Source: Prevotella sp. | Lineage (GTDB): Bacteria > Bacteroidota > Bacteroidia > Bacteroidales > Bacteroidaceae | Reading direction: 5' to 3' | NCBI GenBank assembly: GCA_017483185.1 | Contig: JAFULM010000026.1 | Location: forward strand, 1 to 57,207 | Length of the DNA: 57,207 nucleotides | Shown: piece by piece, positions 11,564 through 56,535 of the stretch | Layout of the letters: the number at the start of each line of letters is the position of its first letter | Position numbering within the stretch: position 1 is the stretch's first letter | Made by a program: the position numbers and the translations under genes | The notes under the pieces: model-generated | Databases searched by the model: none | What the model was told of the DNA's origin: nothing | The model's input: the letters and a program-made list of their open reading frames with translations, nothing else

Positions 11564-11812
11564 AAGCCTTCAAATTTAACACGACTTTCTGAAAAAACAG
11601 TTCTATGGCCGCAAATTCTGCAAAATTTCGCGTGCATCTTTTTCTTCCTGATTAACAGTGTGTTATGTGAATTTTCATGAAAGTGTGCAATCTTTTCGCG
11701 GATTTTTCCGAGCAATAAGGCCCTTATTGCTTTGCAACGGGGCGCTCGTTGCATGATGACGGCGTGCCCGTTGCAAGACAATGAGCACGCCGTTGCAACC
11801 CCGGGAGGCCCT
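11564..11812. repeat. Modular intergenic repeat, copy A
   Basis: The GC-rich core at 11714-11812 is exactly 99 bp, running from an AATAAGGCCC box to a CCGGGAGGCCCT box, with several GCAACGGGGC / CCGTTGC palindromic half-sites between. A tail-like AT-rich module lies at about 11564-11632 in reverse orientation, with ACTTTCTGAAAA as the recognisable block. In this copy the tail sits on the opposite side of the core from copies B, D and E, which the quasi-palindromic core allows. The rest of the 794-bp gap 11297-12090 contains no gene I can support; a small inverted repeat GCCGG/CCGGC lies near 11455-11470. Confidence 0.8.
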
Positions 11813-12067
11813 CCTTGGTCGGATGAAGGGAAAAGACGAAGAGATCAAGAGGGTAAAAATGTCAGAAAACAGCGTTTTAAGCACTTTGTAAAGACATTTT
11901 CGGTGTCATTCTGAAGTGTTAAATTCTTGATGCTTTTCTTACATTTCGCCGGACGATTGGTTTTTCTTCTTTCATACATATAAATAATGTGGAAACTACA
12001 ATGGCTTTTTCTTAGTCCATTCATGTGTCCGACAATCCGAAACGACCAAATATCGCGGCATTTTTTC

Positions 12068-12098
12068 TTGGATTATCCCCGATTTCTCCGTACCTTTG
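12068..12098 (+). promoter_or_regulatory. Bacteroidota-type promoter of rarA
   Basis: TTG 12068-12070, a 20-bp spacer, then TACCTTTG 12091-12098. The ATG at 12108 begins only 9 nt after the -7 box, so the transcript would have almost no leader. Confidence 0.75.
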
Positions 12099-12107
12099 TG
12101 GTCAGTT

Positions 12108-13385
12108 ATGTCACAACCATTAGCAGAAAGACTAAGACCGCGGACCCTCGACGAATATATTGGCCAAAAACATTTGGTTGGTGAGGGGGCGGTGCTGCGC
12201 CGGATGATAGATGCCGGACGCATCTCGTCGTTTATTCTGTGGGGACCTCCCGGAGTGGGAAAGACAACGTTGGCGCAGATTATAGCAAATCGTCTGCAGA
12301 CACCGTTCTACACACTGAGTGCTGTCACAAGTGGTGTCAAGGACGTGCGCGAAGTTATTGATAAAGCCGGCAAGAACCGTTTTTTCAACGAGGCATCCCC
12401 GATTTTGTTTATTGACGAGATACACCGTTTCAGCAAATCCCAGCAAGACTCTCTTCTCGGTGCCGTCGAACGTGGCACGGTCACACTGATTGGCGCCACA
12501 ACGGAAAATCCGTCATTCGAGGTGATACGTCCATTGCTCTCCCGCTGTCAGCTGTATGTGCTCCGGTCGCTCGACAAGGATGATCTCGAAGGATTGCTCA
12601 GACGTGCTGTCACCCAGGATGTCGTTTTGCGCGAACGAAAAATCGAGTTGCGCGAGACAACTGCGATGTTGCGCTATTGCGGAGGTGACGCCCGCAAATT
12701 GCTCAACATTCTTGAACTCGTTGTCGAGTCGTTTGGCAGAGAGTCGGAAGTGGTCATCACAGACGAAGTGGTTGTGCGCAGTCTGCAACAGAATCCTCTG
12801 GCTTACGATAAGGATGGAGAAATGCACTATGACATAATCTCGGCTTTCATCAAGAGCATCCGCGGCAGTGATCCCGATGCGGCAATATATTGGCTGGCAA
12901 GAATGATAGAGGGTGGGGAAGACCCGAAATTCATCGCCCGCCGTCTCGTCATAAGTGCTGCAGAGGATATCGGACTGGCTAATCCCAACGCCCTGTTGTT
13001 GGCCAATGCGGCTTTTGATGCTGTGCAGAAAATCGGGTGGCCAGAAGGACGGATACCGTTGGCAGAGGCAACAGTCTATCTGGCGACAAGTCCGAAGAGT
13101 AATTCGGCATATCTGGCAATAGATACGGCTCTGGAACTTGTGCGTAGCACGGGAAACGAGCCGGTACCACTGCACATCAGGAACGCGCCGACCAAGTTGA
13201 TGAAAGACTTGGGCTATAACGACGGATATAAGTATCCGCATGACTATCCCGGGCATTTTACGCCACAGCAGTATATGCCTGACAATCTTGTCTCGGAGCG
13301 CATCTGGCACGGACAGAACAGTCCGGCGGAAGAAAAACTCCGGCAACGTATGGTGGATTGGTGGGGTGAAAGATACAAGGATTGA
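12108..13385 (+). CDS. rarA: Replication-associated recombination protein A (MgsA/RarA AAA ATPase)
   Basis: 425-aa AAA+ ATPase of the RarA/MgsA/WRNIP1 family, which acts at stalled replication forks and binds single-stranded DNA ends and SSB. Visible motifs are PLAERLRPRTLDEYIGQ at the N-terminus, Walker [11 protein letters not shown], Walker B LFIDEIHRF, sensor 1 GATTENPSF, and the C-terminal tetramerisation region with LATSPKSNSAYLA and YPHDYPGHF. I prefer ATG 12108 over the in-frame TTG at 12096 because that TTG forms part of the promoter's -7 box. A 55-bp gap leads to the dehydrogenase gene, which may be co-transcribed. Confidence 0.95.
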   Translation: MSQPLAERLRPRTLDEYIGQKHLVGEGAVLRRMIDAGRISSFILWGPPGVGKTTLAQIIANRLQTPFYTLSAVTSGVKDVREVIDKAGKNRFFNEASPILFIDEIHRFSKSQQDSLLGAVERGTVTLIGATTENPSFEVIRPLLSRCQLYVLRSLDKDDLEGLLRRAVTQDVVLRERKIELRETTAMLRYCGGDARKLLNILELVVESFGRESEVVITDEVVVRSLQQNPLAYDKDGEMHYDIISAFIKSIRGSDPDAAIYWLARMIEGGEDPKFIARRLVISAAEDIGLANPNALLLANAAFDAVQKIGWPEGRIPLAEATVYLATSPKSNSAYLAIDTALELVRSTGNEPVPLHIRNAPTKLMKDLGYNDGYKYPHDYPGHFTPQQYMPDNLVSERIWHGQNSPAEEKLRQRMVDWWGERYKD

Positions 13386-13440
13386 CACAAATAGAACATT
13401 CGGAAAAACATAACCGGATGGATTTCATAAAAAGACAAAG

Positions 13441-14397
13441 ATGAAGATAACTGTTTTGGACGGATACGGGATGAACCCCGGCGATCTCTCGTGGAAAGCA
13501 CTTGAAGAGTTTGGAGAAGTCACGGTCTATCCGCGCACAGCTCCTGAAGAGGTTTGGGGACGCTGCCGCGACTCGGAAATGCTGCTGACCAATAAGGTCG
13601 TGATAAATCGTAAACTAATCGAATCGCTGCCTTGTTTGCGCTATGTCGGCGTTTTGGCTACGGGATATAATGTTGTGGATATTGACGCCGCTCGTGAGCA
13701 TGGCGTGACAGTGACCAATGTTCCTAATTATAGTACGGACAGTGTGGTCCAGATGACATTGTCGCATATATTGAACATCACAGGGAGAGTGGCCCATTAT
13801 GCCCATCTTAACCGCGAAGGACGATGGAGCGCCGGACCGGACTTTTGCTATTGGGATACCCCGCTGACGGAATTGTCGGGAAAGACTATCGGAATAGTCG
13901 GTCTCGGCAATATCGGAATGAAAGTGGCCACGATTGCACGTTGTCTCGGGATGGATGTTTTTGCTCTTACGGGAAAAGATTCGTCAACATTGCCGGGTGG
14001 TATACAGAAAACGACGTTAGACGGACTATTGGGTGTCAGCGATATATTGACTCTCCATTGTCCGCTTACGGAGAAAACCCGTGGAATGATAAATGCCGAC
14101 AGTATAAGCCGTATGAAGCATGGAGCAATACTCATCAACACCAGCCGCGGACCTTTGGTGGATGAGCAGGCGGTGGCCGAAGGATTGACTACCGGCCAAC
14201 TTGGTGGCTATGGGGCTGACGTAATGTGCTGTGAACCTCCGGCTGCTGACAATCCGTTGTTTTCGGCGCCTAACGCATACATCACTCCACATATAGCATG
14301 GGCAACATTCGATGCACGTCAACGGTTGATGGACACTGTCGTCGCTAACGTTCGTGCGTTCATCGGAGGAGAACCTCAAAATGTGGTCAACGGTTAG
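13441..14397 (+). CDS. D-2-hydroxyacid dehydrogenase (glycerate dehydrogenase/hydroxypyruvate reductase-like)
   Basis: NAD(P)-dependent reductase of 318 aa, normal for the family. The Rossmann motif is GIVGLGNIG (around 150). Catalytic Arg lies in INTSRGPLVDE, Glu in CCEPP and His in TPHIAW. The closest recognisable type is glycerate dehydrogenase (HprA), which interconverts hydroxypyruvate or glyoxylate with D-glycerate or glycolate; other 2-ketoacid substrates cannot be excluded. It lies 55 bp after rarA and 3 bp before the TRIC-family gene, so probably one transcript. Confidence 0.9.
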   Translation: MKITVLDGYGMNPGDLSWKALEEFGEVTVYPRTAPEEVWGRCRDSEMLLTNKVVINRKLIESLPCLRYVGVLATGYNVVDIDAAREHGVTVTNVPNYSTDSVVQMTLSHILNITGRVAHYAHLNREGRWSAGPDFCYWDTPLTELSGKTIGIVGLGNIGMKVATIARCLGMDVFALTGKDSSTLPGGIQKTTLDGLLGVSDILTLHCPLTEKTRGMINADSISRMKHGAILINTSRGPLVDEQAVAEGLTTGQLGGYGADVMCCEPPAADNPLFSAPNAYITPHIAWATFDARQRLMDTVVANVRAFIGGEPQNVVNG

Positions 14398-14400
14398 GGA

Positions 14401-15048
14401 ATGGAACAGGAAATAGCGCTCGAGCCTCTTATTAAGATAATTGAATTGCTCGGAACTTTTGCTTTTGCCATATCGGGGATACGTCACGCTGCTGCCAAAC
14501 ATTTCGATTGGTTTGGTGGATATGTCTGCGGTGTGGCTGTGGCTATCGGTGGCGGAACCATTCGCGATGTTCTTCTTGGGACAACTCCGTTTTGGATGAC
14601 AACACCGATATATCTGATTTGTACAGCGGTGGCACTTTGTGTTGTCATTATTTTTGCCCGTTACATGGAGTTTCTGAATAATGCGTGGTTTGTGTTTGAC
14701 ACGTTGGGACTGGCTCTGTTTACCATTGCCGGTATGCAGAAGAGTCTCGCTTTTGGTCAACCGTTTTGGGTTGCCATCATTATGGGATGTATTACCGGTG
14801 CCGCCGGAGGTGTGATACGTGACATTCTGCTTAACAATGAACCCGTAATCTTTCGTAAAGAGATTTATGCAATCGCCTCTGTTCTCGGTGGTCTGACTTA
14901 TTGGGCTTTGATGGTGGCCGGACTTCCACTCGGTATTACGTCCGTAGCAAGTTTTGCTGTGACATGCGCCATCAGGTTTTTGGCTGTCAGATATCATATA
15001 TCACTGCCTGTTTTGAATGAAGATGTAACGAAGCATGAAAAGCAGTAA
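14401..15048 (+). CDS. TRIC-family (UPF0126/YicG-like) membrane protein
   Basis: Protein of 215 aa with seven predicted transmembrane helices. It contains two internal repeats, each carrying a glycine-rich kinked motif: GGGTIRDVLLG (first half) and AAGGVIRDILL (second half). These are the signature of the prokaryotic TRIC channel family, trimeric monovalent cation channels. A role in this organism is not known. The start codon follows the dehydrogenase stop by 3 bp, which suggests coupling. Confidence 0.88.
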   Translation: MEQEIALEPLIKIIELLGTFAFAISGIRHAAAKHFDWFGGYVCGVAVAIGGGTIRDVLLGTTPFWMTTPIYLICTAVALCVVIIFARYMEFLNNAWFVFDTLGLALFTIAGMQKSLAFGQPFWVAIIMGCITGAAGGVIRDILLNNEPVIFRKEIYAIASVLGGLTYWALMVAGLPLGITSVASFAVTCAIRFLAVRYHISLPVLNEDVTKHEKQ

Positions 15049-15068
15049 TCTTCTGATTGTAAACTGCG

Positions 15069-15152
15069 CATAAAGCCACAAGTGGCACAGATTGACATTT
15101 TGGAAGAAACGCTTCTTCCCGATCGTCCGTCTGTGCCACTTGTGGCTTTATG
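15069..15152. terminator. Long bidirectional terminator with nested hairpin
   Basis: A perfect 23-bp inverted repeat (15069-15091 and 15130-15152) lies between convergent genes. The loop holds a second hairpin, GGAAGAA (15102-15108) with TTCTTCC (15113-15119). Confidence 0.8.
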
Positions 15153-15229
15153 TTTTACGGTTTTTGATGATTTGCCCGTACAACTTCGTTACGATGCAGA
15201 ATCGTGTCCGCTCGCAGCGGAATGTATTC

Positions 15230-16504
15230 TTATTTTTTGACCGGCTTTTTGCTCCAGTCTCTCTGTCTGCCTCCTCTGTCGCGGTTGCCGCCGCGTCTTC
15301 CCTTGTTATTTCCATGATTGCGCCCGTGCTGTGACCTGCTTCGACCGATGACTTTATAATCCGGGCCTTCACCAAGGCCTTCGGGTAGAAGTTTCTTTTC
15401 AATTTCTTTACCAAGGAATTTTTCTATCTGTTTGAACATTGCGGCATCGCGTTCGCTGATGAAGGTGATGGCGGTTCCATCACGGTCGGCCCGTGCCGTA
15501 CGTCCGATGCGGTGTACATAATCCTCAGAATCGTGCGGAACATCATAGTTGATAACCATCAATATGTCATCAATATCTATGCCTCTGGCTACAATATCGG
15601 TGGCAACCAATACGCCCTTTTGGCCGGATTTGAATTCATACATCACTTCATCACGTTCTTGCTGTGTGAGGTCGCTGTGCATTGCGCAACTGTTGATTTT
15701 CATTCGGCGTAATTCCCGATTGATATCCTTGACCTTGTCTTTTTTTCCTGAGAAGATTATCACACGCTGCAACTTGCCTGTGCTGAACAGATGGCGTATT
15801 ATTCCGAGTTTTTGAGTGTCGTAACATACGTATGCAGACTGCTTGATCTTTTCGGCAGGTTTGCTTACTGCGATCTTTACCTCCACCGGATCGTAGAGTA
15901 GACTGTGCGCCAATTGCTGTATCTTGTCGGGCATTGTGGCGGAAAACATGATTGTTTGACGATCCTTTGGCAGACCTTTCGCGATTTGGAGGATATCGTC
16001 GCTGAATCCCATGTCGAGCATACGATCAGCTTCATCCAGTACGAAAAAACTCACACGGCTGAGATCTACATTGCCAGTGCGTATGTGACTGAGCAGTCGC
16101 CCCGGTGTGGCTATCACCACGTCAGCTCCCATTCGTAGGCTTTTCATCTCTTGATCGTATCTGTTTCCGTCATTCCCTCCATATACAGCAACGCTGCTTA
16201 CATTTTCAAGGTAATATCCGAAGCCTTGCATGGCCTGGTCGATTTGTTGCGCCAACTCTCTTGTCGGTGACATTATGATGCAGTTGATGGCGTCATCGGG
16301 AAATCCACCATCATCCAACATGCTCAAAATAGGCAACAGATAGGCAGCGGTTTTTCCGGTTCCGGTTTGAGCCACTCCTATAATATCGCGGCCGTCGAGT
16401 ATCTCCGGAATACATTTTTCCTGGATAGGCGTACATTCCTCGAAGTGCATATCATCTAATGCATCGAGTATGTTATCGTTCAGATATGTATCTTCAAATT
16501 TCAT
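15230..16504 (-). CDS. DEAD-box RNA helicase (RhlE-like)
   Basis: 424-aa ATP-dependent RNA helicase. Motifs in order are the Q motif TPIQEKCIP, motif I AQTGTGKT, Ia SPTRELAQQ, Ib ATPGRLLSH, motif II VLDEADRMLD, motif III FSATMP, motif V VATDIVARGIDID and motif VI HRIGRTARAD. A basic Gly/Arg/Asn-rich tail (GRNHGNNKGRRGGNRDRGG) ends the protein, as in RhlE/CshA-like helicases that act on rRNA and mRNA. It is the last gene of the lon-tgt-lptG/F operon, 3 bp after the preceding stop. Confidence 0.93.
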   Translation of the reverse strand: MKFEDTYLNDNILDALDDMHFEECTPIQEKCIPEILDGRDIIGVAQTGTGKTAAYLLPILSMLDDGGFPDDAINCIIMSPTRELAQQIDQAMQGFGYYLENVSSVAVYGGNDGNRYDQEMKSLRMGADVVIATPGRLLSHIRTGNVDLSRVSFFVLDEADRMLDMGFSDDILQIAKGLPKDRQTIMFSATMPDKIQQLAHSLLYDPVEVKIAVSKPAEKIKQSAYVCYDTQKLGIIRHLFSTGKLQRVIIFSGKKDKVKDINRELRRMKINSCAMHSDLTQQERDEVMYEFKSGQKGVLVATDIVARGIDIDDILMVINYDVPHDSEDYVHRIGRTARADRDGTAITFISERDAAMFKQIEKFLGKEIEKKLLPEGLGEGPDYKVIGRSRSQHGRNHGNNKGRRGGNRDRGGRQRDWSKKPVKK

Positions 16505-16507
16505 TTA

Positions 16508-17728
16508 TTAATTGGGTGCTTTTTTATAACAGTAATATGCAATGAAAGTATATAATATGTTTGGTATCCATGCCGCAAGCATAGGCGGGGTATTGGCGTT
16601 GATTGCAAATGTCGCACAGACAGTTTGCAACAGGATGTATGAGAAACTGAGGGCCATGCCGATGCCCAGATAGAGGCCCATGCCACCCTTTCGTTTGCGC
16701 GAGCTCAGACTCAGACCAATGATCGTGAGGATGAACGACGCGAAGCTGGTAGCTATCCGCTTATGATATTCCACCTCATACTGTACGACATTGCTTGATC
16801 CGCGGTCTTTCTGCTTGGATATGTAGCGCTTCAGTTCCGGACTTGTGAACGTCTCTTGCTGTCCCTTGCTGAACACAAGATCCATCGGTTCCATAATAAT
16901 CATTGTGTCTATTTCCATTCCGGACGTGATGTGTTCGCGCATTCCTTTGAGCGTTCTTATCTTATAGTTTATGGCTTTCCAGTGGTAGCGGCTGTCCGAG
17001 ATCGTATCATATTTGATTACATTGGCTGTCATGTGACTGACAAGTTTCTTGTTTTCAAACTTATCTAAAGAGAAGCCGTAACCAGTCTTGTGCTTATCGT
17101 CATACTGACTGATGTATGCTATGACCCCCTTGTTAACTTGGAGTTGCACATTGCTTGCTGTAGTGTTCTTCTTGCTGTTCTTATATTGCGACTCGAAATT
17201 ATGTCTCACGACCGTGCCTTGTGGTATGATGTATGCTCCGAGATAGAAATTGAGCACCGAGATCAAGGCGGCGGAAATCATGTAGGGACGCAAAAGACGC
17301 TTAAAACTCATGCCACAGGCAAGCATGGCGATAATTTCCGAATTACCAGCCAACTTGGATGTGAAGAATATGACGGCAATGAAAACAAATAGAGGGCTGA
17401 ACAAGTTGGCGAAATAGGGAACGAAATTGGCGTAATAATCGAACACTATCGCACGCAACGGAGCATGATATGTCGTAAATTTGGCCAAGTTCTCATTGAC
17501 ATCAAAGACAATGGATATGGATATGATAAGGACAATAGAGTAGATATACGTACCGATGAACTTCCTTATTAGATATCCGTCAATCTTCTTTATGTAGTTG
17601 AATGGATTGAGGGCACGTAACATCTGAATAGCTTTTGTGTCCTTGCCGAAAAGCCGGAAAAAGCGCAACCACATGAGATGTAGTTTGCGCCACATTGTCT
17701 TTAGCCGGTTGTTGTTGCCTTGTTTCAT
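16508..17728 (-). CDS. LptF/LptG-family lipopolysaccharide export permease
   Basis: 406-aa YjgP/YjgQ family inner-membrane protein. One of its kind pairs with LptB to extract LPS and pass it to the periplasmic bridge. It has three N-terminal helices starting around residue 60, a periplasmic beta-jellyroll-like domain (about 170-320) and three C-terminal helices. The usual YLIRKFIGTY amphipathic segment precedes the first helix. The first 35-50 residues are basic and longer than usual; a start at the Met near 17623 is possible. It lies 10 bp after tgt. Confidence 0.9.
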   Translation of the reverse strand: MKQGNNNRLKTMWRKLHLMWLRFFRLFGKDTKAIQMLRALNPFNYIKKIDGYLIRKFIGTYIYSIVLIISISIVFDVNENLAKFTTYHAPLRAIVFDYYANFVPYFANLFSPLFVFIAVIFFTSKLAGNSEIIAMLACGMSFKRLLRPYMISAALISVLNFYLGAYIIPQGTVVRHNFESQYKNSKKNTTASNVQLQVNKGVIAYISQYDDKHKTGYGFSLDKFENKKLVSHMTANVIKYDTISDSRYHWKAINYKIRTLKGMREHITSGMEIDTMIIMEPMDLVFSKGQQETFTSPELKRYISKQKDRGSSNVVQYEVEYHKRIATSFASFILTIIGLSLSSRKRKGGMGLYLGIGMALSFSYILLQTVCATFAINANTPPMLAAWIPNILYTFIAYYCYKKAPN

Positions 17729-17738
17729 CTCTCCGGAT

Positions 17739-21372: not shown

Positions 21373-21447
21373 TAGAATCCCTTGTTTTTATATGTACGCG
21401 CGCATAAAATAAAAGAGATGACTCACTGCCACCTCCCTAATCTTTTG

Positions 21448-21520
21448 TACGCCTGCAGGGGCTCGAACCCTGGACACCCTGATTAAGAGTCAGGTGCTCT
21501 ACCAACTGAGCTACAAGCGC
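21448..21520 (-). tRNA. tRNA-Lys (CTT), copy 3 in transcription order
   Basis: 73-nt cloverleaf on the minus strand. It has a GCGCTTG acceptor arm, a GCTC...GAGC D arm, the anticodon loop CTCTTAA giving CTT, and the T loop TTCGAGC. CCA is not encoded. It differs from its two upstream siblings by one base in the T loop (G for A). Confidence 0.93.
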
Positions 21521-21543
21521 GTCCGTTACACATTCCGATTTTG

Positions 21544-21616
21544 TACGCCTGCAGGGGTTCGAACCCTGGACACCCTGATTAAGAGTCAGGTGCTCTACCA
21601 ACTGAGCTACAAGCGC
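21544..21616 (-). tRNA. tRNA-Lys (CTT), copy 2
   Basis: 73-nt cloverleaf, identical in sequence to the copy at 21640, with T loop TTCGAAC. It is separated from its neighbours by 23-bp spacers on each side. CCA is not encoded. Confidence 0.95.
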
Positions 21617-21639
21617 GTCCGTTGCAAATCCCGATTTTG

Positions 21640-21712
21640 TACGCCTGCAGGGGTTCGAACCCTGGACACCCTGATTAAGAGTCAGGTGCTCTACCAACTG
21701 AGCTACAAGCGC
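21640..21712 (-). tRNA. tRNA-Lys (CTT), copy 1
   Basis: First copy from the shared promoter at 21732-21763. Same 73-nt structure with anticodon CTT. The three genes form a tandem array probably cut from one precursor. Confidence 0.95.
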
Positions 21713-21731
21713 ATTTCTCGTTTTGCGGGTG

Positions 21732-21763: not shown

Positions 21764-22199
21764 CTTTTTTCTGACTTTTTTGAAAATAATGATTTTTTTG
21801 TTCGTTTCGCGAGGCTTTGACGTTGCTTGCCTATTTCTTTGTGTAAGAACTTGCGTGTTTAAATGTTTATTTGAATGGCCTATATCCGAAAAGCACCGAT
21901 GAAATCAATGATTTTTTGCAATTCGCGTTTGTTTCGGAGAGATATTTGTACCCGTCGCGCATTGCGCAAAAATGTGCGTATGCGGGCGCAAGAATGTCGA
22001 AGTGAAGGCTGAAAGGGACGGGTGGATATCTGTAACACGAAAGTCGGACGGAGGGGGGTGATTATGAATATTCATTACAAAACTTTGTCAGTAAAATCGT
22101 CCGTTTTTGCTTATTCCGGGTCGCCGGGAGGGCCTTATTGGTACTTCGTGGTCCCGTTTGGTGTGCGAAAAATGACAGGGCGCGGCGCTGTTTTGTTCA

Positions 22200-22591
22200 C
22201 GTAAGGCCCTTATGGCTTTTCAGAAATGCAAAAGTTTGCCGGTTTCTGATGCTCGTTTTTAGGCAAAAGTGCACCCGTTTTAATGTCGTAAGGGCCTTAT
22301 TGGGTCGCAACGGGGCGCTCGTTGGAATGTAACGGCGGCCCCGTTGCAAAACAATAACGGCCCCGTTGTAGAGCCGGGAGGGCCCCACGGCAGCCCCTTC
22401 GCGGTCTTCTTTAAAAGCAAGAGCAGACGACGTGTTTATAAGTATCTATATATCAACGCTTTGAAAAATATGCGGTTTTTCTGCCGAAAAATAGTGACAA
22501 AAATGACGTTCGCAGAATTTGAAAATTTGGATGCATGGCGGAATTTTTTCAGAAAGTACCCCTAAAAAACGGCTTTAAATTCGGAAAAAAG
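22200..22591 (+). repeat. Modular intergenic repeat, copy B (long form)
   Basis: It begins with an outer box CGTAAGGCCC at 22200-22209. The inner box CGTAAGGGCC follows at 22287, exactly 87 nt on. The 99-bp core is 22287-22385 and ends in CCGGGAGGGCCC. A 120-bp gap separates it from the tail module at about 22505-22591, which contains GAAAATTTG, GCATGGCGGAA and TTTCAGAAAGT. A further box (CCGGGAGGGCC) lies upstream at 22124-22134. The whole gap 21764-22677 between the tRNA promoter and the trmN6 terminator holds no gene I can support. Confidence 0.85.
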
Positions 22592-22677
22592 TAAACAATC
22601 ATGTCATGCGTGTTGCTGATAGGATATGGGTAAACGAAAATGTCGGATATATGATGATATTCTCAATGCGTAAAACG

Positions 22678-42190: not shown

Positions 42191-42475
42191 TAAGCGGCAA
42201 ATAAAAAAATAAAGAACTTACGCAAAGGTTTACGGATGTGCATATATTATATAAGGTGGAAAACCAGATGTAAATATTGTATGCATAGCCTTGGCAGGAG
42301 CAAAGACGTGAGTATGGTTCATCCTCTTGACACTCTGATTTACGCAAATACAACCGCCGTTTTTGTAAACATTGTTGCAAAAAAAATCCATGACAAATGA
42401 AAATCGTAGTTTTACGCGTTCTAAAGACGTTCAAACCGTTTTAAATTTTGACAAAAACACGGCGGTTTTGCCGTA

Positions 42476-42764
42476 AGGGCCTCCCGGGGTCGCAACGGCA
42501 GCCCCCTTGCACTCCAACAAGGCCGCCGTTGCAACGCAACGACAACTCCGTTGCAGACCAACGGGGGCCTTACGGCAGAGAAAAAATGACATTTTGAGGC
42601 GGAAAAAGCAGCTTTTTTGTGCTAAAAAACTGCACACATCGTGATTTTGCGGTGCAACTATCTTGTTTACAATTAATTACACTTGCACGCGCTATTCTGA
42701 AGAATTTGCGACCGTTGGCAAATTATTTTGGAAAGTGGGGCAAAATGGAGGCCTTTAAAGGCCT
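42476..42764. repeat. Modular intergenic repeat, copy C
   Basis: The 99-bp core at 42476-42574 is delimited by GTAAGGGCCTCCCGG on the left and GGGGGCCTTACGGC on the right, with CGTTGC palindromic half-sites between. It is the most divergent core. A tail-like module lies about 120 bp to the right (about 42696-42760), with GAAGAATTTGCG and TTTTGGAAAGTG matching tail blocks of the other copies. It ends in a perfect 16-bp palindrome, AGGCCTTTAAAGGCCT (42749-42764), followed by five T, which looks like a plus-strand terminator. I support no gene between 42191 and 43170. Confidence 0.75.
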
Positions 42765-48107: not shown

Positions 48108-48159
48108 AAAAGAAAATTCCACCCGACAAAGACTTCTTTGTCGGGTGGAATTTTCTTTT
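48108..48159. terminator. Strong terminator after yebC
   Basis: A perfect stem of about 24 bp (48108-48131 with 48136-48159) around a 4-nt loop, with A-rich and T-rich flanks on either side. It can serve yebC and the convergent lipoprotein gene. Confidence 0.9.
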
Positions 48160-49091: not shown

Positions 49092-49123
49092 CAAAGGTAC
49101 AATAAAAAAACGGGAGTTTGCAA
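49092..49123 (-). promoter_or_regulatory. Bacteroidota-type promoter of the YjbR-like gene
   Basis: The minus strand reads TACCTTTG at 49099-49092 with TTG at 49123-49121, spacer 21 bp. Confidence 0.7.
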
Positions 49124-49285
49124 GTTGATTGGATAAAAAGGGAGTTACGAAAATAAATACATAAAAATATGTGACAAAATCTTGTTCGGGATTTTGCTTA
49201 AAATTCGCTATTTTGAAGCCTTTTTCGAGTGTTTTCCGACCAATAAATGAGCAAATATATGCCAGAAAATATGTCCCCGTTGAGT

Positions 49286-49672
49286 CATAAGGGCCTCCCG
49301 GCTCTTCAAAAGCGCAAAAGTTCAAGAGTTTTTGGCAATGAAAAATGTGCAAAAATGCGGTCGTTTTTGAGCAATAAGGGCCTTACGGTGTTGCAACGGG
49401 GCTGCCGTCATGTTGCAACGGGGCGCTCGTTGCAATGCAATAAGGGCCCCGTTGCAGAGCCGGGAGGGCCTCACGAGCACCCTCTCCACGCCCTGTTCAA
49501 AGATGACGGCCGCCGATGCTCATATAAGTAACTAAATATCAGACGATTGCGAAAACGGAGATTTTTTCGTCAAAAAACAATCTTGATTTTTACCTTCGCA
49601 GGAATTGAAAATTTGACGGCATGGCGGAAAAATTTCAGAAAGTGCCCCTAAAAAACGGCTTCAAATTCAGAA
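49286..49672 (+). repeat. Modular intergenic repeat, copy D (long form)
   Basis: The outer box CATAAGGGCC (49286-49295) and inner box AATAAGGGCC (49373) are 87 nt apart. The 99-bp core is 49373-49471, ending in CCGGGAGGGCCT. A 120-bp gap leads to the tail at about 49591-49672, with GAAAATTTG, GCATGGCGGAA, TTTCAGAAAGT and AAAAAACGGCTT. The core is 97/99 identical to copy E. It fills the gap between the YjbR-like and engB promoters; I support no gene in 49124-49851. Confidence 0.88.
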
Positions 49673-49851
49673 TTTTCAGGACAATGCTGCTCCTGATAGC
49701 ATGCCGTGGGCGATGTCATATCTCATGTGTAATCACTCCGACACGTCAAATTGCTGATAAGCGATATTGTTTTCGTGTCACACCTGATGGATTCTTGCAT
49801 CGGAATATTCACCTCTAATATGTCGGAAAAGCAGCAAATCTCTCTTTTTAT

Positions 49852-49882
49852 TTTGTTATTCGTCTATTTTGGCGTAAATTTG
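49852..49882 (+). promoter_or_regulatory. Bacteroidota-type promoter of the engB operon
   Basis: TTTG 49852-49855, a 19-bp spacer, then TAAATTTG 49875-49882, 21 bp before the ATG at 49904. Confidence 0.75.
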
Positions 49883-49903
49883 CAGACAAAACGAGATTAC
49901 ATT

Positions 49904-50524
49904 ATGGACATACGTAATGCAGAATTTGTAATAAGTTCACCGATGGTGTCAATGTGCCCCAAAGACACCAAGCCGGAATATGCTTTCATCGGGCGTTCCA
50001 ACGTAGGCAAGTCGAGTCTGATAAATATGTTGTGCAACAACAAAAAACTGGCCAAGACGTCAGCGACACCGGGAAAGACACTGCTTATCAACCATTTCAT
50101 CATAAACAAGGAATGGTATCTTGTGGATCTGCCCGGATATGGTTTTGCCAAACGCTCCAAAAAGGAGATTGCCAAATTGGAGCAAATGATAAACGGCTAT
50201 ATACTCCAACGGGAACAGTTAGTAAACGTCTTCGTGCTTGTGGACATACGTCTGGAAGCTCAGAAGATAGACCTCGAATTCATCAATTGGCTCGGTAGCA
50301 GCAGTGTGCCGTTTGCCATTGTCTTCACCAAGGCCGACAAACTGAATACTTCAAAGATACAATCGAATGTCGCTGCCTATAAGCAAGCACTTCAGACTAC
50401 ATGGGAAGAGTTGCCGCCGATGTTCATCACGTCATCAGATAAGAAAATCGGACGGGACGAGCTGCTCGACTATATAGGCGGTATAAACAAGGATTTGGGC
50501 GTGGAAAGTAAGGCCAAACGTTGA
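49904..50524 (+). CDS. engB: Ribosome biogenesis GTPase YsxC/EngB
   Basis: 206-aa TrmE-Era-EngA-like GTPase that assists assembly of the 50S ribosomal subunit. G1 is [13 protein letters not shown]2 lies in SATPGKT, G3 is DLPGYGF, G4 is FTKADK and G5 is ITSSDK. ATG 49904 is chosen because the open frame upstream runs through the promoter and has poor composition. It is the first gene of a six-gene plus-strand operon. Confidence 0.95.
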
Positions 50525-50547
50525 TTCCGATTTCAAAACGACAGAAC

Positions 50548-52341
50548 GTGGCAAAAGAAATACCATATTTGGACGTACAGAACCTGAGCAAAAGATTTGG
50601 TGCTCTGGTACTCTTTGAAAATATCAGCTTCAGCATCGCCGAGGGGCAGAAAGTCGGTCTGATAGCAAAAAATGGCACGGGAAAATCCACTTTGCTTTCC
50701 GTCATATCGGGCAAAGAGGGACACGACTCGGGCAGCATCATCTTCAAGCGCGACCTGAAGGTCGGTTATCTCGAACAATCACCCAAGTTTGATCCGGACG
50801 AGACAGTGCTTGACGCATGTTTCAACCACAATGGTGAAGACGAGAAAGTGCTCAAGGCCAAACAGGTGCTCACGCAGTTGAAGATACGTAACCTATCGCA
50901 GCCTATGGGGCAGCTCAGCGGCGGCCAACAGAAACGTGTGGCTTTAGCCAACGTTCTGCTGACAGATCCGGACCTGCTGATACTCGACGAACCGACCAAC
51001 CACCTCGACCTCGAGATGATAGAGTGGTTGGAGGGCTATCTGTCGCGTGGCAACAAGACCCTGCTGATGGTCACTCACGACCGATTTTTCCTCGATCGCG
51101 TGTGCAGTGTCATCCTCGAACTTGATGACAACCGTATATATACCTACCGCGGCAATTACAGCTACTACCTCGAGAAGCGTCAGGAGCGGCTTGACGCACG
51201 TCGGGCAGAAATAGCCCGGGCCAATAATCTCTATCGTACGGAGCTTGACTGGATGAGACGCATGCCGCAGGCACGTGGTCACAAAGCGCGCTATCGGGAA
51301 GAAGCATTCTATGAATTAGAAAAAGTTGCCAAGCAACGGATGGAGGAAAGACAAATCCGTCTGAAGTCAACCAACGTCTATATTGGCAGCAAGATATTTG
51401 AATGTCAGTATATATCCAAGGCTTGGTCGCCGGAGTGCGTCATAATGAAGGACTTCTATTACAACTTCTCGCGTTACGAGAAGATGGGCATTGTCGGCAA
51501 CAACGGCACAGGCAAATCGACATTCATCAAAATGTTGCTCGGTCAAGAACAGCCGGATGCGGGCCGTATCGTTATCGGCGACACCGTCCGGTTCGGTTAT
51601 TTCTCTCAAGAAGGATTGAAGTTTGACGAAAATCAGAAAGTCATAGATGTCATAACCGACATTGCCGACTATATCGACATGGGAAGCGGACGCCACATGA
51701 CGGCCTCACAGTTTCTCCAGTACTTCCTGTTTACTCCCGAACAGCAGCATAATTATGTCTACAAACTGAGTGGGGGAGAACGGCGCAAACTCTATCTTTG
51801 CACGGTTCTGATGCGCAATCCCAATTTTCTTGTACTCGACGAACCGACCAACGACCTCGATATCGTAACCCTCCAGATACTTGAAGAATATCTGGCCGAC
51901 TTCTCCGGATGTGTCATTATTGTCAGCCACGACCGCTATTTCATGGACAAAGTCGTCGACCACCTGCTGGTCTTCAAAGGCAATGGAGAGATAAAAGATT
52001 TTCCCGGGAACTATACACAATACCGGATGTGGTCTTCATTGGAATCAGAGAAGACGGCAAAGAAGCCGGTCGTGGAAAAGAGTGAGAGGCCAACAGGGCG
52101 GCGGGACGGAGTGGTTGATACGCGCAGGAAGATGTCATACAAGGAAAAAATGGAGTTCGCACGTTTGGAAACAGAGATTGCTGCCTTGGAAGAAGAACAG
52201 CAGCACATCGAAGAAGAGTTGTGCAGCGGTACTCTCAATGTGGACGAACTGACCGAAAAGAGCAAACGTTTGCCGCTCCTGAAAGATGAACTCGACGAGA
52301 AGAGCATGAGATGGCTCGAATTGAGTGAAATCGGGAACTGA
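50548..52341 (+). CDS. ABC-F family ATPase (Uup-like)
   Basis: 597 aa from a GTG at 50548; a TTG at 50521 overlapping the engB stop is the other option. Two ABC domains lack membrane segments. Domain 1 has [12 protein letters not shown], signature [13 protein letters not shown] and Walker [13 protein letters not shown]. Domain 2 has [24 protein letters not shown] and [12 protein letters not shown]. The inter-domain linker (about 225-285) is basic and helical, and a C-terminal coiled coil (about 530-597) is present, as in Uup-type ABC-F proteins that act on the ribosome or DNA. It is followed after 14 bp by recR. Confidence 0.92.
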
Positions 52342-52355
52342 GCAAAAGGACTGAT

Positions 52356-52973
52356 ATGGAACAACAATATCCTTCAAAACTATTGGAAAGAGCCGTCGGC
52401 GAATTTGCCAAATTGCCCGGCGTAGGCCGCAAGACAGCCCTACGTCTGGTACTTCATCTGCTCCGACAGGATGCCGATGAAGTGGGAAAATTTACCGAAG
52501 CCATCGACAGAATGAAGCATGAGATAAAGCATTGTGCCATTTGTCACAACATCAGCGACACGGACATATGTCCGATATGTGCCGATGGACGACGTGATAC
52601 GTCCACAATCTGTGTCGTGGAAAACATTCAGGACGTGATGGCGGTGGAAAACACGCAACAGTTTCGTGGTCTCTATCATGTTCTTGGCGGCATCATTTCG
52701 CCGATGGACGGCATTGGACCGGGAGACATTGAGATTGACTCTCTTGTCGAACGGGTGGGACGTGGTGACATAAAGGAGGTCATCCTGGCTCTCAGTTCCA
52801 CGATGGAGGGCGACACGACCAACTTCTACATATCCCGTAAGCTCACTTCGTTTGAGGTGAAACTGAGCGTAATCGCTCGCGGAATATCCGTAGGTGACGA
52901 ACTTGAATATACCGACGAGGTCACACTGGGGCGGTCGATACTGAACCGTGTACCGTTTGAAAAGAATAACTGA
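52356..52973 (+). CDS. recR: Recombination protein RecR
   Basis: 205 aa, standard for RecR, which works with RecO and RecF to load RecA at gaps. The helix-hairpin-helix is [17 protein letters not shown] (near 22), the zinc finger has [16 protein letters not shown] (around 57-72) and the Toprim domain begins [13 protein letters not shown] with GIGPGDI later. The stop overlaps the next start by one base (TGATG). Confidence 0.96.
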
Positions 52974-53407
52974 TGAAAAAAACACGTAAACATTTGACCT
53001 CCATATTTTGGAGCATACCGGTTGCTGGGGCTGTCTTGGCCTTACTGTTTGAGAGTGATTCGATTGTACCGGGCACGATGGCAGGTTCGGTTGATGCCGA
53101 ATACATATCTCAGTCGATTATGGTATTGGTCACATTGGCCGCCATTCCGGGAGCATTGCGATTGTTCAAGACCCCGAAGGTAATGGCAGACCTCAAGACA
53201 TGTAAAGAATTGGCCCTGCAGAAATGGGGCACGACAAGACTCTGTATGATTGGAGTACCATTCGTATTGAACGTTCTCATGTATTATTTGTTCATGAGAG
53301 CGTCATTTGGTTATCTTGCCATCATTCTATTGATATGTCTGATTTTTGTCTACCCGACAAAGGACCGATGTGCTGCTGAGTTACAAAATGATACAGACAA
53401 AGAATGA
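52973..53407 (+). CDS. Small four-helix membrane protein
   Basis: 144 aa with four predicted membrane helices (about 11-27, 47-65, 92-110, 112-128), a cytoplasmic-looking loop KTPKVMADLKTCKELALQKWG and a charged C-terminus. I do not recognise the family. It overlaps recR by one base and the glycosyltransferase by ATGA, so it is translated as part of the operon. Confidence 0.8.
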   Translation: MKKTRKHLTSIFWSIPVAGAVLALLFESDSIVPGTMAGSVDAEYISQSIMVLVTLAAIPGALRLFKTPKVMADLKTCKELALQKWGTTRLCMIGVPFVLNVLMYYLFMRASFGYLAIILLICLIFVYPTKDRCAAELQNDTDKE

Positions 53408-54597
53408 AACTCACTGTCATCATAGTCAACTATAACGTCAAATATTATGTCGAACAGTGTCTCAACAGTTTGACAAAGGCTCTCGCCGGCATAGAAAACG
53501 AAATTTTTGTCGTCGACAACCATTCCCAAGACGATTCAGTGGCGTACCTGAGCCAACGTTATGCCCATATCCACATCATCGACTGCAATCACAATCTCGG
53601 TTTCGCACGGGCCAACAACATCGCTATCAATCAGTCGACAGGCGAATATGTCCTGCTACTCAACCCTGACACATTTGTGGCCGAAGACACTATCCGCAGT
53701 GTCCTTGACTTCATGGACAGCCATCCCCAAGTCGGTGGAGTAGGGGTGAAGATGCACAACCCAGACGGAACTCTCGCAATGGAGTCACGGCGTGGTCTGC
53801 CCACACCGATGACATCATTCTACAAGATGTGCGGTCTCTGTGCGCGTTTCCCGAGAAGTCGCCGTTTCGGACATTATTATATGAGTTATCTCGGATGGGA
53901 CTCGCCTGAACGCATAGAGATTGTCAGCGGGGCGTTCTGTTGTTTGCGGCGCACGGCGGTGGAAAAAGCGGGAAGTCTTGACGAAGACTTCTTCATGTAC
54001 GGAGAGGACATTGACCTTTCCTACCGACTACTGAAAAGCGGTTATGAAAATTGGTATCTGCCTTATCCGATACTCCACTACAAGGGCGAGAGCACTCACA
54101 AGACTTCGTTCCGCTATGTCCACGTCTTTTATCAGGCGATGCTCATATTCTTCCGAAAGCACTACGGCCACTTAGGAGTATGGATAACGTTGCCCATCAA
54201 GGCGGCAATATACGCCAAAGCCATGATGGCTTTGCTGCGCATGATACCCCACAACATACGCAAGTCATTGGGATTTGTAGACAAGAGTAACGTTGTCGGC
54301 CACTATATATTCGTCGGAAGCAGCACGATGACAGCCCACTGCCAAACCATTGCACGTCGAGTTGGACTTTCGGCAGAATTTCATTGTGTCGACGATGGAA
54401 ATCCGGAAAGCGCTCGAAAAGCTATTGCCGATGCCGTATCAGGCTCATCGCTTACTTATGTGGTCTACGATACGGACTTATTCGGATACGGCATGCTGTT
54501 GGAGATGATGGCTGCCGAGCCCCACCCGAGGGTTCTTCTTGGAACATACAGTGGCAAGACAAAAATCATAATAACACCAGACGATATAATAAAGTGA
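53404..54597 (+). CDS. Family 2 glycosyltransferase with extra C-terminal domain
   Basis: 397 aa. The first about 270 residues are a GT-A glycosyltransferase of the rhamnosyltransferase type: VIIVNYNVKYYVEQCLNSL at the start, VVDNHSQDDS, HNLGFARANNIAI, LLLNPDTF (metal-binding Asp) and DEDFFMYGEDIDLSYRL. It lacks long membrane helices. From about 295 a second, Rossmann-like segment (HYIFVGSSTMTAHCQTIARR through KTKIIITPDDIIK) is fused; I do not know its role. The substrate is likely a surface glycan, which is inference. Confidence 0.88.
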   Translation: MKLTVIIVNYNVKYYVEQCLNSLTKALAGIENEIFVVDNHSQDDSVAYLSQRYAHIHIIDCNHNLGFARANNIAINQSTGEYVLLLNPDTFVAEDTIRSVLDFMDSHPQVGGVGVKMHNPDGTLAMESRRGLPTPMTSFYKMCGLCARFPRSRRFGHYYMSYLGWDSPERIEIVSGAFCCLRRTAVEKAGSLDEDFFMYGEDIDLSYRLLKSGYENWYLPYPILHYKGESTHKTSFRYVHVFYQAMLIFFRKHYGHLGVWITLPIKAAIYAKAMMALLRMIPHNIRKSLGFVDKSNVVGHYIFVGSSTMTAHCQTIARRVGLSAEFHCVDDGNPESARKAIADAVSGSSLTYVVYDTDLFGYGMLLEMMAAEPHPRVLLGTYSGKTKIIITPDDIIK

Positions 54598-54613
54598 CAA
54601 AAATACAGACGAT

Positions 54614-55117
54614 ATGCCTGAGATAACTCTTCGTGCCATCGAGCCGGAAGACCTTGAATTGCTTTACAGAATAGAGAATGACATGCTCCTGTGGAACATC
54701 GGGACGACCAATGTCCCTTACTCGCGTTACGTTCTCCATGACTATGTCGCCCATTCATCCGGTGATATTTATACCGACAGACAGGTCAGACTCATGATCG
54801 AGAATGAGGCGAGAGAGGTCGTGGGTATTGTGGATATAATCAATTTTGATCCGCAGCACTTGCGTGCCGAAGTCGGCATTGTAATCGAAAACCGTCACAG
54901 GAGGCAAGGCTATGCCCAAAGGGCCCTCGAACATATTGCAGAATATTCGCTCAATGTCCTCCATCTCCATCAGCTCTACGCTCTGGTCGATCTGAACAAC
55001 TCCGCTTCACTAAATCTCTTTTCCAAAGCCGGATATACCGTTGTTGCCCGGATCGGAGACTGGCTTTATGACGGGAAGCAGTTTCATGATGCCGCCATGA
55101 TGCAAATCCTATTGTGA
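54614..55117 (+). CDS. GNAT-family acetyltransferase
   Basis: 167 aa with the RimJ/SpeG-like layout. ITLRAIEPEDLELLYRIEND begins the fold, VVGIVDIINFD forms beta4 with AEVGIVIENRHRRQGYAQRA providing the acetyl-CoA pyrophosphate loop (RRQGYA), and the late NNSASLNLFSKAGY is typical. The acceptor is unknown; polyamines or protein N-termini are the usual ones for near relatives. It is the last gene of the engB operon, and its stop codon lies within the terminator stem. Confidence 0.88.
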   Translation: MPEITLRAIEPEDLELLYRIENDMLLWNIGTTNVPYSRYVLHDYVAHSSGDIYTDRQVRLMIENEAREVVGIVDIINFDPQHLRAEVGIVIENRHRRQGYAQRALEHIAEYSLNVLHLHQLYALVDLNNSASLNLFSKAGYTVVARIGDWLYDGKQFHDAAMMQILL

Positions 55118-55175
55118 CAAACCGGCACACGTATGAATCCGTCGTATCTTTCGGACCGTACGTGTGCCGGTTTGT
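55117..55175. terminator. Bidirectional terminator
   Basis: Perfect 17-bp arms at 55117-55133 and 55159-55175 between convergent genes. The left arm starts at the last base of the GNAT stop codon. Confidence 0.85.
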
Positions 55176-55196
55176 TATTGATTGCTCTGGATGTCA

Positions 55197-55871
55197 TCAA
55201 CTGCGTTGCATCTCGCGCAAAAGCTCTTTCTGTCGCTCGCTCAGACCAGTGGGCAGCTTCACATTGTATGTGATAATCAAGTCACCATACGTTCCGTCCC
55301 CTCTGTCATACCCCTTTCCACGTAGTCTGACTTTCGTACCGTTTTGAGTCTCCGGCTTCACCTTGAGCTTGATGCGGCTGCCGTTGCTGAGTTGGATGAC
55401 CACCTCACCGCCAAGCATCGCCGTATAGAGGTCGATGCCGACATTGGCGTTCATCTCTCCGCTGTTGCTCCGCATGCTGTCAGTAGCGGCGCGCTGATGT
55501 CTTGCACGTCCTCCGCCCCCGAACATCTGTTCAAAAAACGAGCTGAAACCATTGCCACCCATATTGAATGACGAAAAATCAAAGCCGTCAAACGGAGAAC
55601 CGCCCCCTGTTTGACCGTAGTTGCCGGCGGAATTGAACATGTCTGCGTTGCGCCATTGCTCACCATACCGGTCATATTTGCTTCGTTTCTCCGGGTCACC
55701 GATGACATCGTAAGCCTCCTGCAAAGCCTGAAACTTAGCCTTTGCCTTCGGATCTTCCGGATGAAGGTCCGGATGAAACTGTTTCGTCCGCTTCAGATAC
55801 GCCTTCTTTACGTCCTTCTGCGGGATGTCCTTGGGGACACCGAGGATTTTGTAGTAATCGATAAATGCCAT
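55197..55871 (-). CDS. Short DnaJ/CbpA-type co-chaperone
   Basis: 224 aa. The J domain (residues 5-70) has the HPD motif in FHPDLHPED and activates DnaK. A Gly/Phe-rich linker (about 80-125) follows. Then comes a single C-terminal beta domain, NVGIDLYTAMLGGEVVIQL through GDLIITYNVKLP. CbpA proteins usually have two such domains and about 300 residues, so the first (substrate-binding) one appears absent. There is no zinc-finger region. I see no frameshift; it looks like a natural short form. Confidence 0.9.
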   Translation of the reverse strand: MAFIDYYKILGVPKDIPQKDVKKAYLKRTKQFHPDLHPEDPKAKAKFQALQEAYDVIGDPEKRSKYDRYGEQWRNADMFNSAGNYGQTGGGSPFDGFDFSSFNMGGNGFSSFFEQMFGGGGRARHQRAATDSMRSNSGEMNANVGIDLYTAMLGGEVVIQLSNGSRIKLKVKPETQNGTKVRLRGKGYDRGDGTYGDLIITYNVKLPTGLSERQKELLREMQRS

Positions 55872-56149
55872 AAATGAATCTCCTTTCCTTATTGTTTTAT
55901 TTGTGTTTCAGTATTCGTCCTGCCCGCCAGATTGTCACATGCCTTTTCCTATTCGGTTTTGTGGCAGTGCCACATATTCGCCAGACATGAAGTTTGATGC
56001 TGGCAGTTTCGGGCAGGATTACTACCTCATGAATAGCAAAAAACATGCCGAAGCAGAGTGATAGACAGAGATTTATTTGACATAACCCATCATACGGATG
56101 TCCGAATTGACGTCCATGCCTCTCCTTCATGACCTTTTGTCCTCTTTTT

Positions 56150-56535
56150 TCTGAATTTAAGCTCAAAATCCGGAGGCACTTTCTGAAAATTTTCAGCCAC
56201 GCTCCCAAATTTTCAATTCCTGCGCAGGTCAAAATCGAGGCCGTTTTCCGACTGAAAAATCACTGTTTTTGCAATCTGTTCATTCTCAACCGTTTATGAA
56301 CGGCGTCAGTTCTCCCTCCCCTTGGGGAGGGCCGGGGAGGGGCTCCGTAAGGCCCTCCCGGCTCTGCAACGGGGCCCTTATTGCATTGCAACGAGCGCCC
56401 CGTTGCAACATGACGGCAGCCCCGTTGCGACCCCGTAAGGCCCTTATTGCTCAAAAACGACCGCTTTTTTGAACGTTTTTCACCATCAAAAACTCTCCGA
56501 CTTTTGTGTTTCAGAGAAGCCATAAGGGCCTTACG
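56150..56535 (-). repeat. Modular intergenic repeat, copy E (long form)
   Basis: Read on the minus strand, the outer box CGTAAGGGCC ends near 56535 and the inner box lies 87 nt on. The 99-bp core is 56448-56350, ending in CCGGGAGGGCCT. A 120-bp gap leads to the tail at about 56230-56150, with GAAAATTTG and TTTCAGAAAGT. The gap holds an added perfect hairpin, CCCTCCCC/GGGGAGGG (56314-56331). A further TAAGGGCC-type box lies at about 56590-56603. The gap 55872-56850 has no gene I can support. Confidence 0.88.

What the first reader, a model, noticed from the sequence alone, without database searches (positions are those of the whole stretch)
11564..56535. Five-copy modular intergenic repeat with a core of invariant 99-bp length
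At 11714-11812, 22287-22385, 42476-42574, 49373-49471 and 56350-56448, a GC-rich core of exactly 99 bp runs from an AAGGSCC-type box to a CCGGGAGGSCC box. Between lie imperfect palindromes built from GCAACGGGGC and CCGTTGC half-sites. Sequence between copies varies, but length does not, which suggests a structural constraint in DNA or RNA. Five copies in 57 kb fill almost all long intergenic gaps. I know no named element of this layout. Function is open: non-autonomous mobile element, structured RNA or protein-binding array.
Basis: partly seen in the sequence, partly recalled or inferred. Interest (0 to 1): 0.8.

Follow-up and report, generated by a model that had tools for sequence, protein, structure and literature searches.

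The report
Five-step DNA ladder in dispersed repeats
A Prevotella-like bacterium carries over a hundred copies of a short dispersed DNA element with five symmetric sites spaced exactly 22 letters apart; the letters change freely but the spacing almost never does, which suggests an unknown protein grips the DNA there.

Summary
The '99-bp core' is part of a 107-bp array of five 19-bp dyads with 3-bp spacers, an exact 22-bp period; 99 = 4x22+11. In this genome 95 of 95 loci found by array searches and 20 of 20 loci fetched for an element-end motif carry it; about 150 copies are estimated. Units stay in register in 171 of 172 distinct arrays from three species, although arrays differ strongly (mean identity 0.67). 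The array sits inside dispersed elements (383-398 bp in one family, about 510-525 bp in another). At rarA the window copy fills a 799-bp gap that is 66-189 bp in 20 of 23 relatives; two close species share the insertion. Other Prevotella-type genomes carry similar 22-bp arrays with other half-site words. Neither five small hairpins nor one long hairpin shows covariation, so RNA or cruciform structure is not supported. Best reading, inferred: a phased ladder of double-stranded DNA sites for an unknown dimeric protein, spread by a non-autonomous element. No Rfam, plasmid, phage or viral-contig match. Nearest published relative in kind: BrickBuilt of Porphyromonas gingivalis.

The parts
11536..11943 (+). 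Copy 1: element (408 bp) between the end motifs TGTTAAAAACTGAGAATTATTATGACA (11536-11562) and TGTTAAATTCTTGATGCTTTTCTTACA (11917-11943), same orientation; between a 264-aa ORF and rarA
   Evidence: gap short in 20 of 23 relatives at this site
11712..11818 (+). Array 1: five 19-bp dyads, 22-bp period
22285..22391 (+). Array 2
22074..22598 (+). Copy 2: approximate extent of the type A element, judged from the conserved end sequences
   Evidence: ends by eye
42470..42576. Array 3 (extent of its element not determined; not among the 95 arrays)
49371..49477 (+). Array 4
49171..49683 (+). Copy 4: approximate extent of the type A element
   Evidence: ends by eye
56344..56450 (-). Array 5
56138..56662 (-). 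Copy 5: approximate extent of the type A element
   Evidence: ends by eye
49288..49297 (.). Extra dyad 87 bp outside array 4 (also 22202-22212 for array 2 and 56523-56533 for array 5); 87 = 4x22-1

Best explanation
A dispersed, non-autonomous element (383-398 bp in the family with clear ends, about 510-525 bp in type A) carries a fixed ladder of five two-fold-symmetric double-stranded DNA sites 22 bp apart. Shown: geometry, copy number, insertion at a site that is short in most relatives, register kept while letters diverge, independence of the two halves of each dyad. Inferred: a homodimeric DNA-binding protein (not identified) occupies the five sites side by side; 22 bp is close to two helical turns, so the dimers would line one face of the DNA. 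The half-site is degenerate, so substitutions are tolerated, whereas a shift would break the phase. The filled ladder would act on the DNA of the intergenic region (bend, insulate, silence or anchor it) rather than through a transcript. Spread by an unknown transposase or recombinase.
For: Exact 22-bp period. 95 of 95 loci, found by BLAST with array 2 or by a 27-base pattern, fit one ungapped 107-bp model, 92 distinct sequences; a free MAFFT alignment of 46 arrays under 85% identical (mean 0.67) opened no gap. Each dyad scored on its own is best in register in 171 of 172 distinct arrays of G000 (92+19), G060 (32) and G061 (29), while the distance from the array to the end motif takes several values (137-181 bp before, 44 cases; 40-181 bp after, 49 cases). 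20 of 20 loci fetched for an end motif have the array, 86-134 bits vs a null maximum of -56. Halves assort independently: pairing 77.7% vs 78.1% shuffled. Arrays of 22-bp dyads recur with other words in G062 and G063, exactly five units in 10 of 20 and 12 of 20 loci. End motif: 60 in G000, 0 in 35 other genomes.
Against: No binding protein was identified and no binding measured. In G062 unit counts run from 4 to 9, in G063 from 2 to 6, so five is not universal. One G061 array (L164) has a unit out of register and one G000 array (L091) looks 1 bp short in its last dyad. Orthologous arrays give no clear indel deficit against their immediate flanks: free alignment opens 10 gaps in the arrays (all in 2 of 10 pairs) where 9.2 are expected; net length change is seen in 0 of 10 arrays, 3 of 20 adjacent windows and 20 of 31 farther windows, so the array is not separable from the inner part of the element. 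Letters are no better conserved than flanks (0.874 vs 0.86-0.87) and at rarA less (0.64-0.66 vs 0.75-0.80). Decayed arrays would be missed by the searches. Gene orientation could be called for only 13 of 92 arrays.
Confidence: 0.45

Rival explanations
1. Selfish cassette: the five sites are needed only for mobilisation, as binding sites for a transposase or recombinase supplied in trans; resident copies have no host role.
For: Two-ended copies have starts 356-357 or 369-371 bp apart (18 of 42 end clusters), so array and ends keep fixed places; genome-specific amplification (465 hits vs at most 4 in each of 59 relatives); multi-site ends of this kind are known from Tn7 and Mu (recalled).
Against: The array is central, not terminal; several flank families share it; copies that stayed in place since species split keep 107-bp net length in 10 of 10 pairs, though their inner flanks do nearly as well.
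Confidence: 0.28
2. Structured RNA: five tandem hairpins or one long hairpin acting in transcripts of neighbouring genes.
For: Dyads are self-complementary (77.7% of arm cells pair); unit 1 mirrors 5 and unit 2 mirrors 4 (75.1%). In 19 type-B-like arrays units 2/4 (z +3.1) and 1/5 (z +2.1) pair slightly more than shuffled, among 45 tests. Within unit 1 one slot pair is coupled (47 vs 33.8 +- 4.0).
Against: No covariation in either fold (448 and 223 of 500 shuffles at least as high); no consistent G.U over A.C bias (type A 137 vs 192, type B 98 vs 68); no Rfam match.
Confidence: 0.1
3. Single-stranded DNA hairpin site used by a HUH/tyrosine transposase, REP-RAYT style.
For: GC-rich palindromes, intergenic, high copy, species-specific, like REPs (abstracts of PMC2817692, PMC3733652).
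Against: Y1 transposase (PF01797) found in only 2 of 5 carrier genomes (G000 is 74.7% complete); no pairing constraint.
Confidence: 0.08
4. Neutral relic: a minisatellite-like array hitch-hiking in a MITE-like carrier, with length kept because the copies are young or indels rare.
For: Substitution as fast as flanks; adjacent windows change length almost as rarely as arrays (3 of 20 vs 0 of 10); some G062/G063 arrays show identical tandem units, so duplication happens (L196, L225).
Against: Register kept in 171 of 172 distinct arrays despite mean identity 0.67 among divergent G000 arrays; dyad grammar and 22-bp step shared by several species with different words.
Confidence: 0.2

Closest known systems
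BrickBuilt of Porphyromonas gingivalis (PMC4596501; abstract and sections 3, 5, 7 part 1 of 2, 8, 13 read)
   Same: Intergenic MITE-like element with a leader, an internal array of about 22-23 bp period and a tail; species-limited; its authors report no Rfam match.
   Different: BrickBuilt has 1 to 22.8 direct repeats of one 23-nt sequence and IS5-like terminal inverted repeats, 19 copies; here five diversified dyads at 22 bp, direct-oriented end motifs, about 150 copies (estimate).
BIMEs / REP elements with RAYT (PMC2817692, PMC3733652; abstracts and outlines seen)
   Same: Mosaic GC-rich palindromes, high copy, extragenic, species-specific, reported protein binding.
   Different: No strict five-step ladder; RAYT genes do not track these arrays.
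Neisserial intergenic mosaic elements with dRS3 dyads (PMC9778887; passages seen)
   Same: About 20-bp dyads with constant arms and variable centres, hundreds per genome, modular.
   Different: dRS3 dyads flank RS repeats and are not stacked at a fixed 22-bp step.
Plasmid iterons and partition-site repeats (recalled, not looked up)
   Same: Phased repeats bound side by side by one protein.
   Different: Single replicon sites, not dispersed through a chromosome; iterons are not dyads.

Membership tests
MITE | Non-autonomous, short, dispersed in many copies | tested here: met
   G000: 95 loci (92 distinct arrays), 20 more (19 distinct) and window array 3; about 150 estimated
MITE | Terminal inverted repeats | tested here: not met
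   Type B family: a 25-27-bp motif in the same orientation at both ends; none seen by eye for type A
MITE | Target-site duplication | tested here: inconclusive
   None seen by eye in the 8 type B and 10 type A copies aligned
MITE | Empty site in relatives | tested here: met
   One site tested: rarA gap 799 bp vs 66-189 bp in 20 of 23 relatives with both genes; 333, 880 and 900 bp in the other three
BrickBuilt | 23-nt direct repeats in variable number and IS5-like TIRs | tested here: not met
   Period 22, five units, units dissimilar; definition from PMC4596501 sections 5 and 7. Sequences were not compared directly
REP/BIME-RAYT | Presence of a RAYT (Y1_Tnp) that tracks the repeat | tested here: not met
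   PF01797 in 2 of 5 carrier genomes
REP/BIME-RAYT | GTAG or CGTC tag beside the palindrome | not tested
   No scan made
Structured RNA family | Compensatory changes in the stems | tested here: not met
Structured RNA family | Match to a curated family | tested here: not met
   Rfam at gathering score: only tRNAs in the window and in 7 sampled loci
Protein-binding site array | Phased symmetric sites with independent half-sites | tested here: met
Protein-binding site array | A protein that binds them | not testable with these tools
   Needs DNA pull-down or footprinting

The most novel reading that the evidence does not exclude
These arrays are chromosomal anchoring or insulating sites of a new kind: a five-rung DNA ladder read by a dedicated protein mainly through spacing and symmetry, with a rapidly changing half-site vocabulary that co-evolves with the protein, built into genomes by a mobile carrier and then kept by the host at well over a hundred intergenic positions.
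Probability: 0.2. Interest if true: 0.85.

Novelty: new variant of a known kind. Interest (0 to 1): 0.6.

Why it matters
Interspersed bacterial repeats are usually explained as hairpins or as decayed mobile DNA. Here letters drift while a five-step, 22-bp register stays, and the two halves of each site do not co-vary, which separates DNA geometry from RNA pairing in one data set. If a protein reads this ladder, roughly 150 positions in a 2.5-Mb genome could be occupied, including the five clear long intergenic gaps of this window, with consequences for expression and chromosome folding in Prevotella-type bacteria.

Tried and rejected
RNA structure: within-dyad, unit-to-unit and long-hairpin pairing, wobble bias and Rfam gave no support, apart from a weak units 1/5 and 2/4 excess in type-B-like arrays and one coupled slot pair in unit 1. 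The idea that perfect palindromes are avoided (self-pairing z negative in 10 of 10) failed a direct count (34 of 230 vs 31.0 expected; 5 of 115 vs 6.0). A first long-hairpin count used a register two columns off; the correct one is.

A claim I withdrew: one search printed 'indels 0' for ten orthologue pairs, but that figure was written into the script because arrays were compared without gaps. Measured freely, arrays get 10 gap openings in 2 of 10 pairs, as many as near flanks predict; net length change is the fairer measure and separates array plus inner flanks from farther windows, not the array alone. For this I lowered the best explanation from 0.5 to 0.45 and the novel case from 0.22 to 0.20, and raised the neutral relic. 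The register claim now rests.

Array inversion relative to flanks: apparent flips came from the near-symmetry of the array. RAYT mobilisation: not supported. Autonomous copies were sought only through end motifs in 1.3-kb loci, which were not scanned for genes. End motifs as promoters: no consistent match by eye. Gene-orientation bias: spurious ORFs covered 69 of 92 arrays, a second approach could of 92. Plasmids, phages (one type A element as query) and viral contigs (one pattern): no match. Gene context of the rare arrays in G064-G066 was not pursued.

Literature: 7 of 10 searches used. Four were open and returned no element of this layout other than P. gingivalis repeat papers (BrickBuilt among them); three were aimed at known relatives. 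Subscription papers are mostly not held.
Full report
What is there. Scanning for dyads showed a ladder: in the first 95 genome loci distances between dyads pile up at 22 (142), 44 (88), 66 (55) and 88 (39). Each array is five 19-bp dyads separated by 3 bp, 107 bp in all; 99 bp is 4x22+11. A model grown from three window copies fits 95 of 95 loci without a gap, at 99.6 bits or more, one array a locus, 92 distinct sequences. Thirty of these loci came from BLAST with array 2, ten from further BLAST places of that call and 55 from a 27-base pattern at 0-1 mismatch. They include four of the five window arrays; array 3 was read by eye. Among 46 arrays chosen to be under 85% identical the mean identity is 0.67, and MAFFT, free to open gaps, opened none.

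Register. Because the model is ungapped, I scored each dyad on its own at shifts of -4 to +4. All five are best in register in 92 of 92 and 19 of 19 distinct G000 arrays, 32 of 32 in G060 and 28 of 29 in G061; the exception is unit 4 of L164. One more, L091, looks 1 bp short in its last dyad by eye but did not reach the 2-bit limit. The stretches between array and end motif vary: before the array 137 bp (17 cases), 149 (15), 150 (5) and five other lengths, after it 86 (21), 87 (14), 181 (10) and four others. Part of this variation is family structure.

Grammar. The outer dyads have the centre GGSCC and arms built from two three-base slots, mostly {CCG, CAA} and {TAA, CGG, GGA}, in all six combinations; in the inner dyads the arm is mostly CAACGG (308 of 570 halves) with a variable centre. 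Left and right halves choose words independently: of 10 slot pairs, 8 have fewer complementary words than expected, one is level (23 vs 22.7) and one is higher (slot 2 of unit 1, 47 vs 33.8 +- 4.0). Some near-identical arrays differ by whole half-site words; how these are exchanged is not known.

Copy number. The 27-base pattern at up to 3 mismatches gave 465 hits in G000 against 1 for the reversed control; the other 59 relatives had 0-4 each, like their controls. In 399 genomes of the family a related pattern gave 559 hits in G000, 99 in G391 (the same places as G060), 7 in G174 and at most 3 in the rest, 110 genomes having any hit. Capture-recapture with two baits, arrays (95) and type-B end motifs (42 clusters, 26 shared), gives about 150 arrays. 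This assumes that end-motif copies are caught like the others.

The carrier. Flanks fall into families. A 25-27-bp motif, TGTTAAA...TKACA, lies near the array in 37 of 92 loci, 49 hits against 1 in shuffled flanks. In type B both ends carry it in the same orientation; 18 of 42 end clusters have two motifs, starts 356-357 (11) or 369-371 bp (7) apart, hence elements of 383-398 bp. The window copy at rarA is 408 bp. Type A copies are about 510-525 bp by eye. The motif pattern occurs 60 times in G000 and not in 35 other genomes. As an independent test I fetched 20 end-motif loci without a known array: all 16 unsampled and 4 of 7. All 20 hold the five-dyad array, 86-134 bits against a null maximum of -56, 19 of them distinct.

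Insertion. A 264-aa ORF and rarA are divergent neighbours 799 bp apart in G000. Of 31 relatives with rarA, 29 gave loci and 23 of these show the neighbour; 20 have gaps of 66-189 bp, the others 333, 880 and 900 bp, and the two long ones look like coding sequence, not arrays. The sequence next to the neighbour gene is kept in G000, and the extra DNA lies between it and rarA. G060 and G061 (rarA 92% identical) have the array at the same place, gaps 729 and 810 bp; in G062 and G063 (82-83%) the neighbour was not found. So this insertion predates the split of the three close species. Only this site was tested.

Other carriers. A pattern scan of the named-genome collection returned 33 stretches. 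Counts at up to 2 mismatches: G060 (uncultured Prevotella, CAMVUM) 99 vs control 0, G061 (uncultured Prevotella, CAMWVS) 92 vs 0, G062 (uncultured Prevotellaceae RUG11619) 376 vs 0, G063 (Prevotella sp. MGM1) 61 vs 1, G064-G066 6, 19 and 16. G391, which has G060's hit places, is in the window's genus. Single hits in unrelated organisms were not followed and may be chance. In G060 and G061, 35 loci each (some overlapping) fit the five-unit model at 71.9 and 90.6 bits or more. In G062 and G063 exactly five units were scored in 10 of 20 and 12 of 20 loci; the range is 4-9 and 2-6. Words differ: GCATTT and GCGTTT in MGM1, CAACGAG...CTCGTTGGGGTT in G064-G066.

How it evolves. Ten orthologue pairs between G060 and G061 were picked by hand from the best flank matches, the last two less certain. 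Array identity is 0.874, flanks 0.86-0.87. Free alignment of array and flanks together opens 10 gaps in the arrays, all in two strongly diverged pairs and cancelling in length, where near flanks predict 9.2. Net length changes occur in 0 of 10 arrays, 3 of 20 adjacent 107-bp windows and 20 of 31 farther ones; with gap-averse scoring 0, 3 and 17. So the array and its inner flanks are length-stable together, and ten pairs cannot single out the array. At rarA, G000 against G060 or G061 gives array identity 0.64-0.66 and flanks 0.75-0.80; the array keeps 107 bp under gap-averse scoring, while permissive scoring moves 4 bp to the flank.

Structure tests. Five small hairpins: paired cells 77.7% against 78.1% in shuffles, covariation 0.223 against 0.232. 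One long hairpin in the right register: 75.1% against 75.3% and 0.221 against 0.220; cells changed on both sides 125 against 116.8. Wobble pairs do not exceed A.C mismatches consistently. Of 45 unit-pair tests within families, 2/4 (z +3.1) and 1/5 (+2.1) in type-B-like arrays and 2/5 (+2.0) in G063 stand out upward, 3/3 (-2.1) in type-B-like arrays downward. RNA folding is therefore not what keeps the ladder, as far as pairing can tell.

Mechanism. What remains is geometry on double-stranded DNA: symmetric sites, independent degenerate halves, fixed 22-bp phase near two helical turns, and in some copies an extra dyad 87 bp away. I infer a dimeric protein bound five times in a row. The protein, the effect on neighbours and the mobilising enzyme are unknown. 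A selfish role and a neutral relic remain serious rivals.

Known relatives. BrickBuilt in P. gingivalis is the nearest in kind (PMC4596501): MITE-like, intergenic, internal 23-nt array, but variable in number, made of direct repeats and with IS5-like inverted ends. REP/BIME and NIME resemble it in being mosaic palindromes. None, as far as I read them, has the fixed five-step ladder. Hence new variant of a known kind.

Noticed in passing
window 21443-21730: Three near-identical tRNA genes in tandem on the minus strand, 96-bp unit.
   Followed up: no
window 48108-48159: Perfect 25-bp inverted repeat with 2-bp loop just after a YebC/TACO1 gene; possibly a terminator.
   Followed up: no
window 15069-15152: Inverted repeat with 40-nt arms, 85% complementary, 4-bp loop, between ORFs.
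   Followed up: no
window 56308-56345; also L012, L021, L054, L060, L070, L071 beside the array: A second GC-rich palindrome (CTCCCxxxGGGAG type) sits next to the array in several type A copies.
   Followed up: no
flanks of L031, L069, L071, L082: Another palindromic repeat, GGTCGCGACGGGTCGCGACC, outside the elements.
   Followed up: no
L196, L219, L225: MGM1 and G062 arrays with identical or near-identical tandem dyads, up to 8-9 units in G062, so the ladder can expand.
   Followed up: partly
L282, L296: In two relatives the rarA gap holds about 900 bp of apparently coding DNA instead of an array.
   Followed up: no
L323: Upstream of rarA in MGM1, with another neighbour, lies a short run of MGM1-type dyads.
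   Followed up: no
L014, L082 left ends: Just inside the type B left end the minus strand reads GAGACATTTGTA, similar to the IS5-type TIR GAGACCTTTGCA listed for BrickBuilt; not kept in all copies.
   Followed up: no
L175 versus L160: In one orthologous array unit 3 looks turned round between species.
   Followed up: partly
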